Origin: Methylococcales bacterium
GTDB lineage: Bacteria; Pseudomonadota; Gammaproteobacteria; Methylococcales; Methylomonadaceae
DNA: 64,000 nt
Reading direction: 5' to 3'
NCBI GenBank assembly: GCA_026399095.1
Contig: JAPLRP010000076.1
Span: 1-64,000 of the forward strand
Made by a program: the position numbers and the translations under genes. The notes below the pieces were generated by a model. The model was not told where the DNA came from. It did no database searches and worked only from the letters and a program-made list of their open reading frames with translations. Shown here piece by piece: positions 12,522 to 21,126 of this stretch (within the stretch, counting starts at the first letter, position 1; every line of letters starts with the position of its first letter).

Positions 12522-13460
12522 TCATCCCTCATTACACCCAACCGGAATCTGCCAAGACGTATTCAACTTCTCATGTTTGGCATAATCTGCAACAGGTATC
12601 TTCTCCCCTGTTATTTTCTCTATATCCTCAACAGATACCAAGTATTGATCCAATCGTTTACCAGTAGCATCTTGAGAGTTAGGAACAATCCAAGCAATAG
12701 CTCGTTCATCTGCACCAGTACCACGCACAATCACTTTCCAGTATGCATCCGGTGTTCTAACACCATGACTCTCTAGAAAATAGTCATCAGTAGAATTATT
12801 CCCCCAAATGACACCGCCAATAACCAATAGCTCTGCAATATCCCGATAGCATTCTGTAATCTTCTCTGTCTGAAGCCATGCACCACGATTCATGTTTGCA
12901 GCTTGTGGCAGAATATTGGTCATGTAATTGGTTTGTCGAATGGATACTGCAGAATTGTCCATATGGTTTGCTGGAACTTGATGTCCACGATCGTATTTCA
13001 TGCCATATGCTTTGGCAGAATATTGCTGACATTCCTTTGGAACATTAGGATCTAAAGAGAACTTGTCGTAGCGCTTGAAACTTCCTGTATCTCGTTGTGC
13101 TACATATTGGAACTTAATTGGAGCACGTTTAGAGCAATCCAACCACACTGTAAATCCAGAATAATCTAACTTTAAGATGTTGTCAGAAACTTTACTGATT
13201 TCCGAGTTATCTTGAGCAATGGGAGCAACAGTTGGTTCAATGGATTCTGGAGCTGTAGCAACAGGAGCTGCTTTCTGGGTAGTGTTACCACTAATATAGC
13301 TAGAGCAGTCTTTGGTAGACTTACTGGAACTGCCATCATTACAGACAAATTGTGTGCCTTCACAATGCGATATTCCACCTTTCTTACCTGAGCAAGGTTT
13401 TCCTCCAGCTATAGTGGATAGGGGGAGTAGTAATAGGGCAAATAATAGGATTTTGTTCAT
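12522..13460 (-). CDS. Exported NUC1-family DNA/RNA non-specific endonuclease
   Basis: I take the start at 13460, where a normal signal peptide begins (MNKILLFALLLLPLSTIAGG); the reading frame runs further upstream but without a signal. The 312-residue protein has a Cys-rich spacer with CEGTQFVCNDGS (about 33-44), a Pro/Ala linker, then the endonuclease domain: YDRGHQVPANH (catalytic H160) and ANMNRGAW (metal-binding N191). These are the diagnostic NUC1/Serratia nuclease motifs. It should act outside the cytoplasm, degrading DNA and RNA for nutrients, competence or competition. Its ATG overlaps the stop of the metallophosphoesterase gene (TAATG). Confidence 0.9.
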   Translation of the reverse strand: MNKILLFALLLLPLSTIAGGKPCSGKKGGISHCEGTQFVCNDGSSSKSTKDCSSYISGNTTQKAAPVATAPESIEPTVAPIAQDNSEISKVSDNILKLDYSGFTVWLDCSKRAPIKFQYVAQRDTGSFKRYDKFSLDPNVPKECQQYSAKAYGMKYDRGHQVPANHMDNSAVSIRQTNYMTNILPQAANMNRGAWLQTEKITECYRDIAELLVIGGVIWGNNSTDDYFLESHGVRTPDAYWKVIVRGTGADERAIAWIVPNSQDATGKRLDQYLVSVEDIEKITGEKIPVADYAKHEKLNTSWQIPVGCNEG

Positions 13461-14011
13461 TATAAATCCAAGATGAAGTTCTTTTCTCCATAAACCCCCA
13501 TAATACAGGTATTCCCTCGATAGGAAACTTCTCGGCAATGTTGGTGACCGTGCAGGAAATACGCTGGCTGTGCTCTATCAATATACTCAATAAATGCATC
13601 AAATCCCTGATGGATTCCTGTATCCCTTTCATGGATCCCCCTTGGTGAGTTATGGGCAATGAATACATCTACAGCAGGAAAGTTCTGTAATAGCTGATGT
13701 GCTTCATCCTGTGTATACATATGATTCCCAACTTTCTTGTATTGCCAGCTACCAGCAAATCCTGCAAATGTTAGACCAAATCGTTCTATGGTTTGAAGAT
13801 GAAGATCTATAGTAGGAGCAGGAAATATTTGATCTACGCAATGATTGCCTCTTACAGCAATAACATGTTCTGGTGCATAGAGATCTATTGCCTTCTGCAA
13901 AGTCACATCATAAAGGTCTCCAAGAGAGATCAGAATATCTACTTCTGCCTCTGGTTCAATACGACCAACAAGGAAATCATCATCTGCAATGGCAATTATG
14001 TTTAGCATCAC
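13460..14011 (-). CDS. Metallophosphoesterase
   Basis: A 183-residue cytoplasmic calcineurin-like phosphoesterase with the ordered motifs IIAIADDDFLVG, ISLGDLYDV, AVRGNHC, IAHNSPRG and FLHGHQHC, which supply the Asp/His/Asn ligands of a two-metal centre. The usual first motif DxH reads DDD here, which may affect metal binding. The start is GTG 14011 or the ATG immediately after. Translationally coupled to the exported nuclease downstream. Relatives act on nucleotides, cyclic nucleotides or phosphodiesters, so a nucleic-acid breakdown pair is plausible but inferred. Confidence 0.8.
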   Translation of the reverse strand: MMLNIIAIADDDFLVGRIEPEAEVDILISLGDLYDVTLQKAIDLYAPEHVIAVRGNHCVDQIFPAPTIDLHLQTIERFGLTFAGFAGSWQYKKVGNHMYTQDEAHQLLQNFPAVDVFIAHNSPRGIHERDTGIHQGFDAFIEYIDRAQPAYFLHGHQHCREVSYRGNTCIMGVYGEKNFILDL

Positions 14012-14323: not shown

Positions 14324-14620
14324 ATAAAGCACGGTCTGTCAAATAGTTAGGAAAAATACTTCATGTAATATTTGCAGTAGTGCTGTAACTGGTTGAAACA
14401 TTGAATTACCTGTCCGAATTCATCCTAATATAAATGACGTTAGTTTTTTGGTATTAAAAAAGTATTTACTTAGGAGATATAGGTTAGAATCAAACAAGAT
14501 GCAGTAAATTTAACTAAAAAATTGAAGATAAGGTAGGTGAGGAGTATTGCTTGATATCTTGTTTCTTTTAGCTTTACAAAGTTGAATATGCAAGAAACGA
14601 CATGTAAATATTTACAGCAA

Positions 14621-14735
14621 TAAAAAGCCCCCTTAAGTTTTAACTTTGCGAGGGCTATGGTCGCTTGAAAGCGTTGCCTACGAAAAACAATTTCATTGGT
14701 ATGAAAAGCAAGTAGGCTATAGTTGGTTACACTAT
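14621..14735 (-). ncRNA. tracrRNA of the type II-C CRISPR system
   Basis: Read on the minus strand, 14733 to about 14698 is an anti-repeat. Its first 21 bases (AGUGUAACCAACUAUAGCC...) are perfectly complementary to the 3' part of the crRNA repeat, and the rest pairs with the 5' part around a UUU/UUU internal loop. A tracr tail follows with hairpin CGCUUUCAAGCG, then an AAGU/ACUU stem closed by GCCC/GGGC and a run of U (14626-14622), a Rho-independent end. The RNA is about 110-115 nt. It is antisense to the cas9 leader: its gene occupies the 5' leader region of cas9 on the opposite strand. Structure was derived by eye; an RNA-seq profile would fix the ends. Confidence 0.88.
14696..14723 (+). 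promoter_or_regulatory. Candidate cas9 promoter inside the tracrRNA gene
   Basis: On the plus strand TTGGTA (14696-14701), a 16-base spacer and TATAGT (14718-14723) make a plausible promoter, with a start near 14731 and a cas9 leader of about 32 bases. TATAGT is part of the repeat-like (sense) sequence of the anti-repeat, so cas9 and tracrRNA would fire face to face. Other promoters further upstream are not excluded. Confidence 0.35.
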
Positions 14736-14741
14736 GAATAT

Positions 14742-14770
14742 AGAATATACATAAGGATGCAAATGAGCAA
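14742..14770 (-). promoter_or_regulatory. tracrRNA promoter overlapping the cas9 start codon
   Basis: On the minus strand TTGCTC (14770-14765), a 17-base spacer and TATTCT (14747-14742) form a sigma70-like promoter. The predicted start is near 14735, two bases before the anti-repeat. The -35 box lies on the first codons of cas9 (ATG at 14763), so the two genes share these bases. Confidence 0.55.
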
Positions 14771-17700
14771 GGTAATTTTAGGTCTCGATTTAGGCAGTAA
14801 CTCAATTGGCTGGGCATTACTAAAAGAAAAAGACGGTAAACCCAATGAAATCATAAACATTGGCAGTCGCATCTTTACCAAAGCAGTTGAAGAAAAGACA
14901 CCTACTCCCAAAAACGTTAAACGTAGAAACGCTAGATTATCGAGGCGAGTAACTCAGCGTAGAGCAAGACGTAAATTGAAAATGCTCAATTACCTCATCA
15001 AACTAAATCTACTACCTCAAGAACTGACAAACAATCCAACACCAGAAATATTACTTAATGAATTGGGTAGTCCTTATTTATTGCGTGCCAAAGCACTTGA
15101 TAGTCAATTAACCAAATTTGAACTAGGTCGAGTATTACTGCATCTTGTGCAAAGACGCGGTTTTTTGAGCAATAGAAAAACTCTTCTAGGTGATATGGCA
15201 GATGACCCCGATGTGTTAGATGTATTGTCCGAACTTGAAGGTGAAGATGATAATAGTTCAGACCGAGCAAAAGAAGAAACTGCATTTAAAGCAGATATTA
15301 GTAAATTAAAAAAGACGATTAGTGACATAGGTTTTCGTACACTGGGTGAATATCTTGCATCACTTGATCATCATGATTGCAAACGTAACCGATCAAGAGA
15401 TGGCGGGCATTTACGCACAGATCGACAAATGTATCGTGACGAACTCAATCTGATTTGGGAGCAACAAAAGCAATACCATGATACGTTAACTGACACAGTA
15501 AAAATTCAAATAGAAGAGATTATATTTAAGCAACGCCCATTAAAACTAAATCCTGATCGCATTGGTAAATGCTCGTTGGAAACCACTCGGAAACGAGCAA
15601 AAATTGCACGATTAGAATGTCAGAGGTTCCGCTATCTTCAGGATATTAACAACCTACAATATTTTGATTATTACACTGAAAAATCAACCAGTCTTGATGA
15701 TGCTGCTAAACAAAAGCTGGTACATTTGTTTGAAACAACAGCGAATATCAGTTTTGCAGGGATAAGAAAAGCTTTAGGTTTTGATAAAACGACAGAATTT
15801 AATCTGGAAAATGGTAACAAAAAATTAAAAGGCAATATAACTGCGTGTGAGATCCGTAAGCAACTCCCAGATTGGGATTCGTTGGATGACAGTAATCAGC
15901 ATGCATTAGTTGAAGATTTACTCACCATCAATAAGAAGTCTGCTTTAAAAAACCGACTGACTGGACATTGGGGATTTTCTGCAAACACAGCAGTGCAACT
16001 CTGTTTACTAGAGTTTGAGCCAGGTCATAGCAACCATTCAACTAAAGCTATTGGTAAAATGCTACCTTTCTTACAGCAAGGACAGATTTATTCTGATGCT
16101 CGTGTCAGTGCAAATTACGGCTATGAAGTAGCTAAAATAAATGTTGCTGATAAATTAGGCACTCCCCCTGAAACGTCCAATCCTATAGTTAACAAAGCAC
16201 TTCACGAGTTACGAAGACTAATTAATGCCATCATTGCTGAATATGGCAAACCGGACGCTATTAGGATAGAAATGGCGCGTGATTTGGAAATGAACACAAA
16301 GCGCTACCAAGACTTTATTAAGCAACAATCCAAAAACACAAAAGCAAACGATGAGGCAATTAGTTCTTATCAAGAAATGGGACAGAAAAATCCTCACCTT
16401 GCCTTATCAAAATATCCGAGCAAAACAGATAAACTTAAATATCGTTTATGGCAGGATCAAAAACAATGCTGTGCTTACAGTGGCAATCCCATCACTAAGT
16501 CGGAATTATTTAGTAGCGCTATAGAAATTGATCATATCTTACCCTACAGCGAATCACTGGATGATTCATACATGAATAAAGTGATTTGCTACACCAGCGA
16601 GAATCGTTTTAAAGGTCAGAAAACTCCGATAGATGCTTTTGGTGGTAATACAGATAAGTGGAATCAAATTACTCATAGCATCAATAAGTGGGACAGATCA
16701 TTAAAATCTAAGAAAGCTCGATTCTTTACTACCTTTGCTGAGTTACAAAAACGTGATTTTATCAGTACACAATTAAATGATACTCGCTATATAGGGCAAG
16801 TTGCACAAGGCTATCTAATTGAATTGGGTGCTGATATCTCTGTTAGTAAAGGGATTACGACTGCTTGGATGCGTCATCAGTGGGGATTGAATAGTTTGAT
16901 TGGTGAAACCGATAAAAAGGAACGCACTGATCATCGGCATCATGCTATTGATGCTTTAGTTGTCGCCTGTGTTGATAGACGTTTATATCAAGCATTAGTC
17001 AATACAGCAAAAGAATTAGAACGCTCTCAAACAGAACTCAATATGAAGGATATTTATATTGATCCACCTTGGCATAATTTACGTGATGAGTTAGAGCAAG
17101 CACTTGATAATGTCATTATTGCCCATGTTCCGCAGCTAAAATTAACAGGAGAATTACACGAAACCACAGGTGCAGGATTTATTAACGGTATTGGTAATGT
17201 TAATCGTAAAAATTTAGACGGTAGTTTCACTCAATTTAAAAAAATTATTGATCCTATCGTTAGAGAGTTAGTTGAGCAGCATTTAGTAAATCATAATAAT
17301 AATCCTAAAAATGCTTTTGCAGAAGGCGTAACCGTTTACCATAAAGATGGAAAAACCCCGATAAAACGTGTGCGTGTCTTACAATCTAAAACTACTCTGG
17401 ATAAGCTTGGAAAATCCAAATTTGGTGCAAAAGATAAGCAAGGTAACATATTTAAATGGCTTGCTTATGGCAACATGCATCACGTAGAGATCATTAAACA
17501 CAAAGAATCGGGCAAGTATTCTGGACAATTTGTAACCACGATGGAAGCTACACATCGAGCGAAAGGTATCAATATTCCTAAGCAGAAAATCATCAAAATA
17601 GATCACGGTGAAGATCATGAGTTCATTCTAGCATTGCATATTAACGATTTGGTAAGTATGGAAAAAGATGGTCAGACATTGTTTTATCGTGTTCAAGTTT

Positions 17701-17858
17701 TAGATTCTGGCGGTAATAGGATTGTATTACGTCTACATACAACAACAGTATTAAATAATAAAAGTGAGGAAATATATTTTAGTATCAATGAAAGTTCATT
17801 TACTATGTGGCAATTAAAAAAACATTCAGTAAATGCAATTGGAAAACTAATTGAGTGA
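14763..17858 (+). CDS. cas9: Cas9, type II-C RNA-guided endonuclease
   Basis: The start at ATG 14763 gives 1031 residues, with AAGG six bases upstream; the frame runs further 5' only through the tracrRNA antisense region. Domain order is standard: RuvC-I (VILGLDLGSNSIGW, D9), arginine-rich bridge helix (about 55-85, RRNARLSRRVTQRRARRKLK), REC lobe, RuvC-II (IRIEMARDLEM, E503), HNH (IEIDHILPYS, D590 H591, and the ENRFKGQ end), RuvC-III (DHRHHAIDALVVACVD, H727 and D730), then the WED/PAM-interacting part. All catalytic residues are present. The size lies between the Campylobacter jejuni and Neisseria meningitidis enzymes, so this is a compact II-C Cas9. The last four bases overlap cas1. The PAM cannot be read from the sequence. 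Confidence 0.97.
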   Translation: MSKVILGLDLGSNSIGWALLKEKDGKPNEIINIGSRIFTKAVEEKTPTPKNVKRRNARLSRRVTQRRARRKLKMLNYLIKLNLLPQELTNNPTPEILLNELGSPYLLRAKALDSQLTKFELGRVLLHLVQRRGFLSNRKTLLGDMADDPDVLDVLSELEGEDDNSSDRAKEETAFKADISKLKKTISDIGFRTLGEYLASLDHHDCKRNRSRDGGHLRTDRQMYRDELNLIWEQQKQYHDTLTDTVKIQIEEIIFKQRPLKLNPDRIGKCSLETTRKRAKIARLECQRFRYLQDINNLQYFDYYTEKSTSLDDAAKQKLVHLFETTANISFAGIRKALGFDKTTEFNLENGNKKLKGNITACEIRKQLPDWDSLDDSNQHALVEDLLTINKKSALKNRLTGHWGFSANTAVQLCLLEFEPGHSNHSTKAIGKMLPFLQQGQIYSDARVSANYGYEVAKINVADKLGTPPETSNPIVNKALHELRRLINAIIAEYGKPDAIRIEMARDLEMNTKRYQDFIKQQSKNTKANDEAISSYQEMGQKNPHLALSKYPSKTDKLKYRLWQDQKQCCAYSGNPITKSELFSSAIEIDHILPYSESLDDSYMNKVICYTSENRFKGQKTPIDAFGGNTDKWNQITHSINKWDRSLKSKKARFFTTFAELQKRDFISTQLNDTRYIGQVAQGYLIELGADISVSKGITTAWMRHQWGLNSLIGETDKKERTDHRHHAIDALVVACVDRRLYQALVNTAKELERSQTELNMKDIYIDPPWHNLRDELEQALDNVIIAHVPQLKLTGELHETTGAGFINGIGNVNRKNLDGSFTQFKKIIDPIVRELVEQHLVNHNNNPKNAFAEGVTVYHKDGKTPIKRVRVLQSKTTLDKLGKSKFGAKDKQGNIFKWLAYGNMHHVEIIKHKESGKYSGQFVTTMEATHRAKGINIPKQKIIKIDHGEDHEFILALHINDLVSMEKDGQTLFYRVQVLDSGGNRIVLRLHTTTVLNNKSEEIYFSINESSFTMWQLKKHSVNAIGKLIE

Positions 17859-18685
17859 TTAAGCGTACTATAGATATTAGTGAGCCAGCTTATCTTTATC
17901 TAAAGTATCAGCAATTGTTGATTGATAAGCAAGGCGAAACCATTGCACAAATACCAATTGAAGATTTAGGTGTAGTGATCTTGCAGAATTCTGCAATAGT
18001 GATTACTCAAGCAGTTATCATTGCTTGCCAGAAAAATAATGTGGTCATGGTTTTCTGTGATGAAAGACATTTACCCTACTCAGTTTTGTTACCCATCAGT
18101 GAGGGTAATAATCTGCATAGTAAAATTTTACAACAACAGTTATTGTTGACGTTACCTACCAAAAAACGTTTATGGCAGCAGATTGTTACGCAGAAAATTA
18201 AAGGACAAGTAAATACTTTAAAAGCACTGGATAAAATGTATGCTCCACTCGAACGATTATCCGAGAATGTTAAAGCAGGTGATCCAGAGAATTTAGAGGC
18301 ACAAGCTGCTCAACTTTACTGGAAGTTGCTTTTTGGTAATGAGTTTAGACGAGATGTAGAATTAGATGGCATCAATAGTTTGTTAAATTACGGTTATTCG
18401 ATTATGCGTGCTATGGTTGCAAGAGCAATTGTCTGTAGTGGATTACATCCAACTATTGGATTAAACCATCATAATCAATATAACAGTCTATGTCTTGCTG
18501 ATGACTTGATGGAGCCATTTAGACCTTGGGTGGATCTAAAGGTCTATCAAATGATTAAAAGTAATCCAGAGCTGCAAGTTACTAAAGAAACAAAAGTACC
18601 ACTGTTAAATTTATTGTCGGAAACAGTAACATGGGAGCATCAAGAAATGCCGTTAATGGTTGCTTGTCATTATTTAATGGCATAA
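17855..18685 (+). CDS. cas1: Cas1 integrase of CRISPR adaptation
   Basis: A 276-residue Cas1, starting at a GTG that overlaps the cas9 stop (GTGA), so it is translated by coupling. Family residues are visible: E148 (ENLEAQAAQLYWKLLFG), H205 in TIGLNHHNQYNSLCLADD, and the D216/D217-E220 stretch of LADDLMEPFRPW. Cas1 with Cas2 inserts new spacers at the leader end of the array. Length is slightly under the usual 290-310 but no motif is missing. Confidence 0.95.
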   Translation: MIKRTIDISEPAYLYLKYQQLLIDKQGETIAQIPIEDLGVVILQNSAIVITQAVIIACQKNNVVMVFCDERHLPYSVLLPISEGNNLHSKILQQQLLLTLPTKKRLWQQIVTQKIKGQVNTLKALDKMYAPLERLSENVKAGDPENLEAQAAQLYWKLLFGNEFRRDVELDGINSLLNYGYSIMRAMVARAIVCSGLHPTIGLNHHNQYNSLCLADDLMEPFRPWVDLKVYQMIKSNPELQVTKETKVPLLNLLSETVTWEHQEMPLMVACHYLMA

Positions 18686-19134: not shown

Positions 19135-21126
19135 AGTGTAACCAACTATAGCCTAACTGCAAATCACAACAGACGCGCACTGGCGGAGTGGATAGCTTTA
19201 AGTGTAACCAACTATAGCCTAACTGCAAATCACAACGAGGGACTGCATTTATAGTTTACCGCGCAGAGTGTAACCAACTATAGCCTAACTGCAAATCACA
19301 ACTCCACTAAATCCCGCGATTGTAAAATTATTAGTGTAACCAACTATAGCCTAACTGCAAATCACAACTGCATGGCAAGATCACAAAGAAAATACATTAG
19401 TGTAACCAACTATAGCCTAACTGCAAATCACAACTGCCGCTTAATTCTGTTGCGCGATCAATCGAGTGTAACCAACTATAGCCTAACTGCAAATCACAAC
19501 ACTACATAGATAGTTATTATTTTACTATTAAGTGTAACCAACTATAGCCTAACTGCAAATCACAACCTTTGTACCATGATATAAAACTATTCCACTAGTG
19601 TAACCAACTATAGCCTAACTGCAAATCACAACCTCGCTGCTCAAATACCAACAGCTCGGTGAAGTGTAACCAACTATAGCCTAACTGCAAATCACAACGA
19701 ATGGCAAGCAATAATGGTGCAAGAAAATAGTGTAACCAACTATAGCCTAACTGCAAATCACAACCGTCCGTATAAATTGCCATTACACGTTTATAGTGTA
19801 ACCAACTATAGCCTAACTGCAAATCACAACTTGATATTAAATTCAGGCGTGGTTGTTCTGAGTGTAACCAACTATAGCCTAACTGCAAATCACAACGTAA
19901 ACCTAACTTGGACTCTGCGCAACGTGAGTGTAACCAACTATAGCCTAACTGCAAATCACAACTTGCCTTTTAACATTATCCCATCATCTGCGAGTGTAAC
20001 CAACTATAGCCTAACTGCAAATCACAACATACGGCTGGGCATTGATTTAACCGGTTCTAGTGTAACCAACTATAGCCTAACTGCAAATCACAACCTCCGA
20101 TGCAAAACCGGCGAAGCCCTCCTAAGTGTAACCAACTATAGCCTAACTGCAAATCACAACACTGTCATCTAGGCCAGCATGACGTAAACTAGTGTAACCA
20201 ACTATAGCCTAACTGCAAATCACAACGTCTATGAGTGAGTCGAGTTCTGATTTTTAGTGTAACCAACTATAGCCTAACTGCAAATCACAACCGAAATGCT
20301 CTTTGTAAAATGGAATAATTGAGTGTAACCAACTATAGCCTAACTGCAAATCACAACGACGACAGACAGTGTAACCAACTATAGCCTAACTGCAAATCAC
20401 AACGTGGATGTAGACACCAACAAACAGACAGGTAGTGTAACCAACTATAGCCTAACTGCAAATCACAACGCTGGGGTTCCCTTCTCAAAGTCTGCCCTAG
20501 TGTAACCAACTATAGCCTAACTGCAAATCACAACTTCTTCTTCGAGAATCAATTGGGTAATGCGAGTGTAACCAACTATAGCCTAACTGCAAATCACAAC
20601 GTAGGGCAGATATTAGAACTTATCATCCACAGTGTAACCAACTATAGCCTAACTGCAAATCACAACTGACATACTGCGTGGCTGTAAAACGGGTGAGTGT
20701 AACCAACTATAGCCTAACTGCAAATCACACCTCTCGATCTGATGCTGTCAGCAGACCCTATAGTGTAACCAACTATAGCCTAACTGCAAATCACAACTCT
20801 TTTCTACGGTGGTCTAATTATGCCTTTAGTGTAACCAACTATAGCCTAACTGCAAATCACAACAGCAAGGACAATCAATGTTTGATCAAGGATAGTGTAA
20901 CCAACTATAGCCTAACTGCAAATCACAACAGCAAGGACAATCAATGTTTGATCAAGGATAGTGTAACCAACTATAGCCTAACTGCAAATCACAACTGTTC
21001 TGTTCTGTTCTGCTCGCGAGCTGGGAGTGTAACCAACTATAGCCTAACTGCAAATCACAACAGTGGACTCTTCACCCAATCGACAAATGTAGTGTAACCA
21101 ACTATAGCCTTACTGCAAATCCCACC
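19135..21126 (-). CRISPR. CRISPR array, 31 repeats of 36 bp, 30 spacers
   Basis: Counted repeat by repeat. The repeat on the plus strand starts AGTGTAACCAACTATAGCC and ends CAAATCACAAC. The canonical type II orientation (GTTGTG at the 5' end) is on the minus strand, so crRNAs are read toward cas2. Spacers are 30 bp, a few 29 bp. Exceptions: a 10-bp spacer at 20358-20367 and a duplicated spacer at 20864-20893 and 20930-20959. Repeat 25 (20696-20731) has one substitution. The last repeat (21091-21126) has three, all in the 5' half of the crRNA-sense repeat. On the minus strand each repeat holds TTTGCA, 17 bases, TACACT, a promoter-like arrangement as in Neisseria II-C arrays. Plus-strand reading frames across the array are artefacts of the 66-bp period. 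Confidence 0.98.

What the first reader, a model, noticed from the sequence alone, without database searches (positions are those of the whole stretch)
14696..14770. Face-to-face cas9 and tracrRNA promoters over a shared anti-repeat
The tracrRNA is on the minus strand and its -35 box covers the cas9 start codon; a TTGGTA/TATAGT promoter candidate for cas9 lies inside the tracrRNA gene. The two promoters would interfere, and the cas9 leader would carry a crRNA-repeat-like sequence able to pair with tracrRNA. This could make a built-in feedback on Cas9 level.
Basis: partly seen in the sequence, partly recalled or inferred. Interest (0 to 1): 0.7.

Follow-up and report, generated by a model that had tools for sequence, protein, structure and literature searches.

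The report
tracrRNA promoter inside the cas9 start

Summary
The window holds a type II-C CRISPR locus (cas9-cas1-cas2, 36-nt repeats) from a Methylococcaceae-like genome. The tracrRNA on the minus strand (about 14735 to 14622) is real: its anti-repeat tracks each locus's own repeat, its helices covary, and it ends in a terminator. Its promoter does overlap the cas9 start: -35 TTGCTC at 14770-14765, -10 within 14749-14742. In 36 loci with this layout, cas9 codon 2 ends in C 33 times (12.8 expected), against 0 of 9 loci where tracrRNA lies elsewhere or cas9 is displaced: selection on DNA, not protein.

The proposed cas9 promoter (TTGGTA/TATAGT) is present but at chance level. TATAGT is the repeat's own sequence, and the pair has usable spacing in only 7 of 36 loci. 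It would start transcription near 14730, so the leader would not carry the repeat-like sequence and feedback by pairing fails. No array unit in the window has a seed match to the cas9 upstream region.

Unexpectedly, four relatives with tracrRNA away from cas9 each carry a crRNA-like unit whose 10-nt seed matches a site upstream of their own cas9 (at the promoter -35 in three): a CreR/tracr-L-like loop in type II-C, not found in the window's layout.

The parts
14622..14735 (-). tracrRNA, predicted start about 14735, end in the T-run at 14626-14622
   Evidence: anti-repeat matches own repeat; covarying helices; fold z -3.66; start inferred from the promoter position, not measured
14708..14733 (-). 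anti-repeat; its + strand reads like the crRNA repeat
14622..14656 (-). intrinsic terminator of tracrRNA (hairpin plus T-run)
   Evidence: sequence, fold, conserved stem with varying loop
14742..14749 (-). tracrRNA -10: TATATT (14749-14744, 15-nt spacer) or TATTCT (14747-14742, 17-nt spacer as in close relatives)
   Evidence: hexamer conserved at this place: 30 of 36 loci have 5 or 6 of 6 matches to TATAAT; the window's own is among the weaker
14765..14770 (-). tracrRNA -35 TTGCTC, overlapping the G of the cas9 start codon and codons 2-3
   Evidence: codon-2 wobble C in 33 of 36 loci against 12.8 expected, 0 of 9 controls; top of 64 codon positions
   Evidence: chance level; 7 of 36 loci
14728..14733 (+). 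TACACT, repeat-type -10 element at the end of the anti-repeat; possible cas9 promoter element, unproven
   Evidence: matches the type II-C repeat -10 described in PMC4607530; lost in L056, L119, L120
14753..14757 (+). cas9 ribosome-binding site AAGGA
   Evidence: sequence; purine-rich stretch in the leaders
14763..17858 (+). cas9, type II-C, 1031 aa
   Evidence: TIGR01865 632 bits; start by homology
17855..18685 (+). cas1
   Evidence: TIGR03639
18754..19083 (+). cas2
   Evidence: TIGR01573
19135..21124 (-). CRISPR array, crRNA sense on the minus strand, about 31 repeats of 36 nt, last one degenerate

Best explanation
A type II-C CRISPR locus in which tracrRNA is transcribed away from cas9, from a promoter lying wholly inside the cas9 leader and first codons. 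RNA polymerase at this promoter covers the DNA of the cas9 ribosome-binding site and start codon and starts tracrRNA at about 14735. [quoted passage not shown] The likely effect is local competition: tracrRNA initiation limits cas9 and helps set their ratio. Shown: tracrRNA identity, DNA-level selection on its -35 inside cas9, no conserved sequence upstream of tracrRNA. Inferred: start sites, the competition, and that cas9 starts at or just after the anti-repeat (for example from TACACT 14728-14733). No sign of RNA-guided feedback in this layout.
For: tracrRNA. Promoter conserved: -10 and -35 at fixed places in 36 loci, score above shuffles z 1.38 +/- 0.17. Selection: codon 2 ends in C in 33 of 36 against 12.8 expected while the amino acid varies; 0 of 9 control loci; top of 64 codon positions; five further loci keep TTG at the start. 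L037, with cas9 130 nt away, has a TTGCAA...TATTAT pair near the anti-repeat instead (sequence, read by eye). No conserved upstream promoter or operon: no similarity upstream and mixed gene orientation.
Against: The competition is not shown: no expression data exist here, and no + strand promoter is enriched over the anti-repeat (z -0.13 +/- 0.16), so cas9 might start elsewhere. The window's own tracrRNA -10 is weaker than most. Loci are related by descent, so counts overstate independence. The promoter matrix is an approximate E. coli one typed from general knowledge.
Confidence: 0.6

Rival explanations
1. One reading: cas9 is driven by TTGGTA/TATAGT inside the tracrRNA gene, its leader carries a repeat-like sequence that pairs with tracrRNA, and tracrRNA with Cas9 represses cas9 (feedback).
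For: The hexamers are present with 16-nt spacing, and in six other loci.
Against: Chance-level frequency; spacing broken in close relatives L009, L011, L043, L048, L124 and hexamer absent in the rest; TATAGT follows the repeat; the start near 14730 leaves about 4 nt of repeat-like sequence in the leader.
Confidence: 0.07
2. cas9 is transcribed by read-through or from a promoter upstream of tracrRNA. The long leader is then fully antisense to tracrRNA, and pairing with RNase III cleavage would link the two RNAs.
For: No enriched + promoter near cas9; in 19 of 29 loci the nearest long ORF upstream points the same way; + strand sites of ordinary strength exist upstream in some loci.
Against: No similarity upstream between the window and any fetched locus, and the nearest upstream gene is on the opposite strand in the window and nine others; upstream + promoter scores do not exceed shuffles (z -0.23 +/- 0.18); such a transcript would consume tracrRNA.
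Confidence: 0.25
3. The overlap is mere compaction: the tracrRNA promoter happens to reach into cas9 and is kept for tracrRNA only, with no effect on cas9.
For: Selection is shown only for the tracrRNA promoter; loci with displaced cas9 exist (L027, L028, L030, L037).
Against: The 25-34 nt spacing is held in 36 loci across distant hosts; polymerase bound there would cover the cas9 start DNA (established footprint size, not tested here).
Confidence: 0.3

Closest known systems
Type II-C loci with tracrRNA upstream of cas9 (EHCas9, PMC10281378; C. cellulolyticum, PMC7038990)
   Same: tracrRNA gene upstream of cas9 with its own promoter and terminator; array transcribed against the cas genes; repeat 3' ends resembling a -10 element
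   Different: Here the tracrRNA promoter overlaps the cas9 start codon and is shown to be under DNA-level selection; the passages read in those papers do not mention such an overlap
Type II-C repeat-embedded promoters (C. jejuni, PMC3656092; survey PMC4607530)
   Same: Repeats end in a -10-like TACACT/TACAAT, carried also on the + strand of the anti-repeat
   Different: Here the element lies in the anti-repeat and would point at cas9; the extended TGn is mostly missing; activity unknown
tracr-L natural single guide of S. pyogenes type II-A (PMC11417352)
   Same: A proposed link between tracrRNA and cas9 expression
   Different: The window's tracrRNA starts at the anti-repeat with no guide, and no seed match to the cas9 upstream region was found
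CreR crRNA-like autoregulators of types I and V-A (PMC12737573)
   Same: Relatives L042, L044, L047 and L059 carry a crRNA-like unit whose seed matches their own cas9 upstream region
   Different: Those relatives are type II-C with Cas9; the window has no such unit

Membership tests
Type II-C CRISPR-Cas | cas9-cas1-cas2 with no csn2 or cas4 | tested here: met
Type II-C CRISPR-Cas | array convergent to the cas genes, repeats with a 3' -10-like end | tested here: met
   crRNA sense on the minus strand, deduced from the anti-repeat; repeats end in TACACT (gnTAnaaT-like, PMC4607530)
tracrRNA | anti-repeat complementary to the local repeat, co-varying with it | tested here: met
   19.5 of 20 within locus, 16.9 across loci
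tracrRNA | conserved hairpins and a terminator | tested here: met
tracrRNA | expression and crRNA maturation | not testable with these tools
   no RNA data
RNA-guided cas9 autoregulation (tracr-L or CreR type) | guide with a seed match of about 10 nt to the cas9 promoter region next to a PAM | tested here: not met
   window: 32 units, none with 9 nt or more; no 8-nt spacer seed in 14601-14800. Four relatives meet it
Mutually exclusive overlapping promoters | two active promoters with close start sites and overlapping footprints | tested here: inconclusive
   only the minus promoter is supported by sequence; activity of either is not testable here

The most novel reading that the evidence does not exclude
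Type II-C loci of this Cas9 family use one of two exclusive ways to hold Cas9 down: a tracrRNA promoter built into the cas9 start codon that competes with cas9 transcription (the window and about 40 related loci), or a crRNA-like guide that sends Cas9 to its own promoter region (L042, L044, L047, L059).
Probability: 0.3. Interest if true: 0.7.

Novelty: new variant of a known kind. Interest (0 to 1): 0.42.

Why it matters
How Cas9 is kept in check outside type II-A is little known. Here a promoter element of another gene is written into the first codons of cas9 and kept by selection across many species, so one synonymous change gives a clean test of tracrRNA-cas9 coupling. It also warns that recoding or moving cas9 in such loci would damage tracrRNA expression. 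The guide-based alternative in sister loci makes a direct comparison possible.

Tried and rejected
Rfam scan of the window: no hits. TACACT as a universal cas9 promoter: not settled; lost in L056, L119 and L120, and kept in L042, L044, L047 and L059 where cas9 has, or appears to have, another promoter. Retention of TACACT with cas9 distance as a natural test: mixed (L037 and L061 lost it; L062, L027 and L030 keep TACACT or TACAAT). A + strand -10 overlapping the near-palindromic tracrRNA -10: rejected, since transcripts would start in the ribosome-binding site. A degenerate half repeat at 14370-14394 (+) as a crRNA-like guide: it beats 200 shuffles locally, but similar scores occur elsewhere in the 64 kb, and the seed search found nothing for the window. 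More members of the guide-bearing group: a family-wide search gave no new ones. Arrays of L119 and L120, to compare repeat ends: none found in the fetched stretches. Measured cas9 start sites in Neisseria: none found in held papers.

Full report
What is there. The window carries cas9 (14763-17858), cas1, cas2 and a CRISPR array at 19135-21124. It lies in a 2.77 Mb genome. A genome of the same genus (G529) gives locus L110, whose sequence upstream of cas9 agrees with that of the uncultured Methylococcaceae locus L010. The repeat in crRNA sense is GTTGTGATTTGCAGTTAGGCTATAGTTGGTTACACT. A predicted minus-strand RNA from about 14735 to 14622 begins with an anti-repeat to this sequence and ends in a hairpin and T-run.

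tracrRNA is real. Among 20 loci with a readable array and an upstream tracrRNA, the last 20 nt of repeat and anti-repeat agree at 19.5 positions within a locus and 16.9 between loci. In 29 distinct homologues, three helices keep 95.3% of cells paired, with five pairs changed on both sides, a number never reached in 500 shuffles. The window RNA folds 3.66 sd below shuffles.

Its promoter sits in cas9. Of 48 cas9 relatives, 35 have the tracrRNA 25-34 nt before the cas9 ATG, as the window does; start codons of the window and L009 were taken at the homologous ATG. On the minus strand, 30 of these 36 loci have a hexamer with 5 or 6 of 6 matches to TATAAT ending 7-12 nt from the anti-repeat, and most have TTGCTC or TTGCCC over the ATG at 16-18 nt spacing. 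Promoter scores there exceed shuffled segments (z 1.38 +/- 0.17), while the + strand over the anti-repeat does not (z -0.13 +/- 0.16), and neither strand further upstream does. The scoring matrix is an approximate E. coli one, typed from general knowledge, and these shuffles were mononucleotide.

Selection test. The free letter in this -35 is the third base of codon 2. It is C in 33 of 36 loci, although the same cas9 genes' own codon use predicts 12.8; none of 200,000 simulations reached this. Codon 2 is the most C-enriched of 64 codon positions tested (z 7.3; the next is codon 75 at 6.3, then 2.9). The amino acid varies (Ser, Gly, Val, Phe) while C stays, and where it is not C another TTG appears (ACA in L026 and L056, CAA in L039). 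L055 is the one locus without TTG there. In nine loci where tracrRNA lies elsewhere or is not seen before the contig ends, or cas9 is displaced by 58-130 nt, codon 2 never ends in C. Five further loci of the same layout (L115, L119, L120, L123, L124) keep TTG at the start, four with NNC in codon 2. The loci are related by descent, so the figures overstate independence, but the controls belong to the same family.

The proposed cas9 promoter. TTGGTA-16-TATAGT exists, but such sites occur at the shuffled rate. Seven of 36 loci have it with 16-17 nt spacing. The close relatives L009, L011, L043, L048 and L124 have TATAGT at 19-20 nt, and most others have CTTAGT, CTTGGT or similar. TATAGT is present because the repeat has it; TTGGTA belongs to a stretch conserved in the aligned tracrRNAs. 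The promoter would start transcription near 14730, so the leader would hold about 4 nt of the repeat-like stretch. A promoter here and a repeat in the leader exclude each other.

Where cas9 starts is open. The 610 bp upstream of the window's tracrRNA show no similarity to any fetched locus, and in 29 loci the nearest long ORF points either way, 19 + and 10 -. A shared promoter, if any, must therefore lie over the tracrRNA gene. The conserved candidate compatible with a ribosome-binding site in the leader is TACACT (14728-14733), the counterpart of the -10 element that type II-C repeats carry at their 3' end (PMC4607530; C. jejuni, PMC3656092). It is lost in L056 and in L119 and L120, so this stays a guess. 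If right, the two starts lie about 5 nt apart and diverge, and polymerases exclude each other.

Feedback. None of the window's 32 repeat-bearing units has a 9-nt or longer seed match in the 600 bp upstream of cas9, and none of the 28 extracted spacers has an 8-nt seed in 14601-14800. The predicted tracrRNA begins at its anti-repeat, so it carries no guide. Competition between promoters is a plausible coupling, not a feedback.

A loop in sister loci. In L042, L044, L047 and L059 tracrRNA lies a few hundred bp from cas9, and a crRNA-like unit stands between them. Its last ten guide bases match a site 174-220 bp upstream of cas9, followed by GAAAA or TAAAA. In L042, L044 and L047 the match runs into the -35 of a TTGAAA-16/17-TATAAT promoter; in L059 the promoter is less clear. 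The seeds differ between loci: each matches its own site over 10 nt and other loci over 0-7 nt, and shuffled guides reach 10 nt in 9 of 4000 trials. In L044 the unit is followed by a terminator-like hairpin, so it is probably a separate RNA (read by eye). This resembles CreR, described for types I and V-A (PMC12737573), and tracr-L of type II-A (PMC11417352). Among loci of the window's layout, four short matches appeared (L013, L019, L024, L049), all from array spacers and at unrelated positions, as chance would give. That contrast is the basis of the most novel reading.

Verdict. The finding is a sound observation of an overlapping tracrRNA promoter, now backed by comparative evidence. The cas9 promoter and feedback attached to it are not supported.

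Noticed in passing
L042:7560-8000, L044:7570-7995, L047:1590-2038, L059:1150-1500: A crRNA-like unit between tracrRNA and cas9 has a 10-nt seed matching a site upstream of the same locus's cas9, with GAAAA or TAAAA after it; seeds differ between loci and each matches only its own. Candidate RNA-guided Cas9 autoregulation in type II-C.
   Followed up: partly
L044, L047, L059: between the targeted promoter region and cas9 (ORF starts at -136, -140, -131 in the 240-nt stretches): A small open reading frame of about 40 aa, 54% identical between pairs, with a hydrophobic second half (MNFESLKDLLQFIV...), no Pfam match. Possible unannotated small membrane protein of the cas operon.
   Followed up: partly
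window 20864-20893 and 20930-20959: Two adjacent spacers are identical (ATCCTTGATCAAACATTGATTGTCCTTGCT), a spacer duplication within the array.
   Followed up: no
window 20322-20368: Two repeats start only 46 nt apart, so the spacer between them is about 10 nt: a truncated spacer.
   Followed up: no
window 14370-14394, + strand: A stretch resembling half a CRISPR repeat (ATTTGCAGTAGTGCTGTAACTGGTT), above 200 local shuffles, though similar scores occur elsewhere in the window.
   Followed up: partly
L014:7831-7971: The Methylovulum miyakonense tracrRNA has an insertion of about 30 nt that duplicates the TTGGTAT stretch after the anti-repeat.
   Followed up: no
window 12525-14008, minus strand: A DNA/RNA non-specific endonuclease (PF01223) and a calcineurin-like phosphoesterase lie upstream on the opposite strand, about 600 bp from the tracrRNA end.
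   Followed up: no
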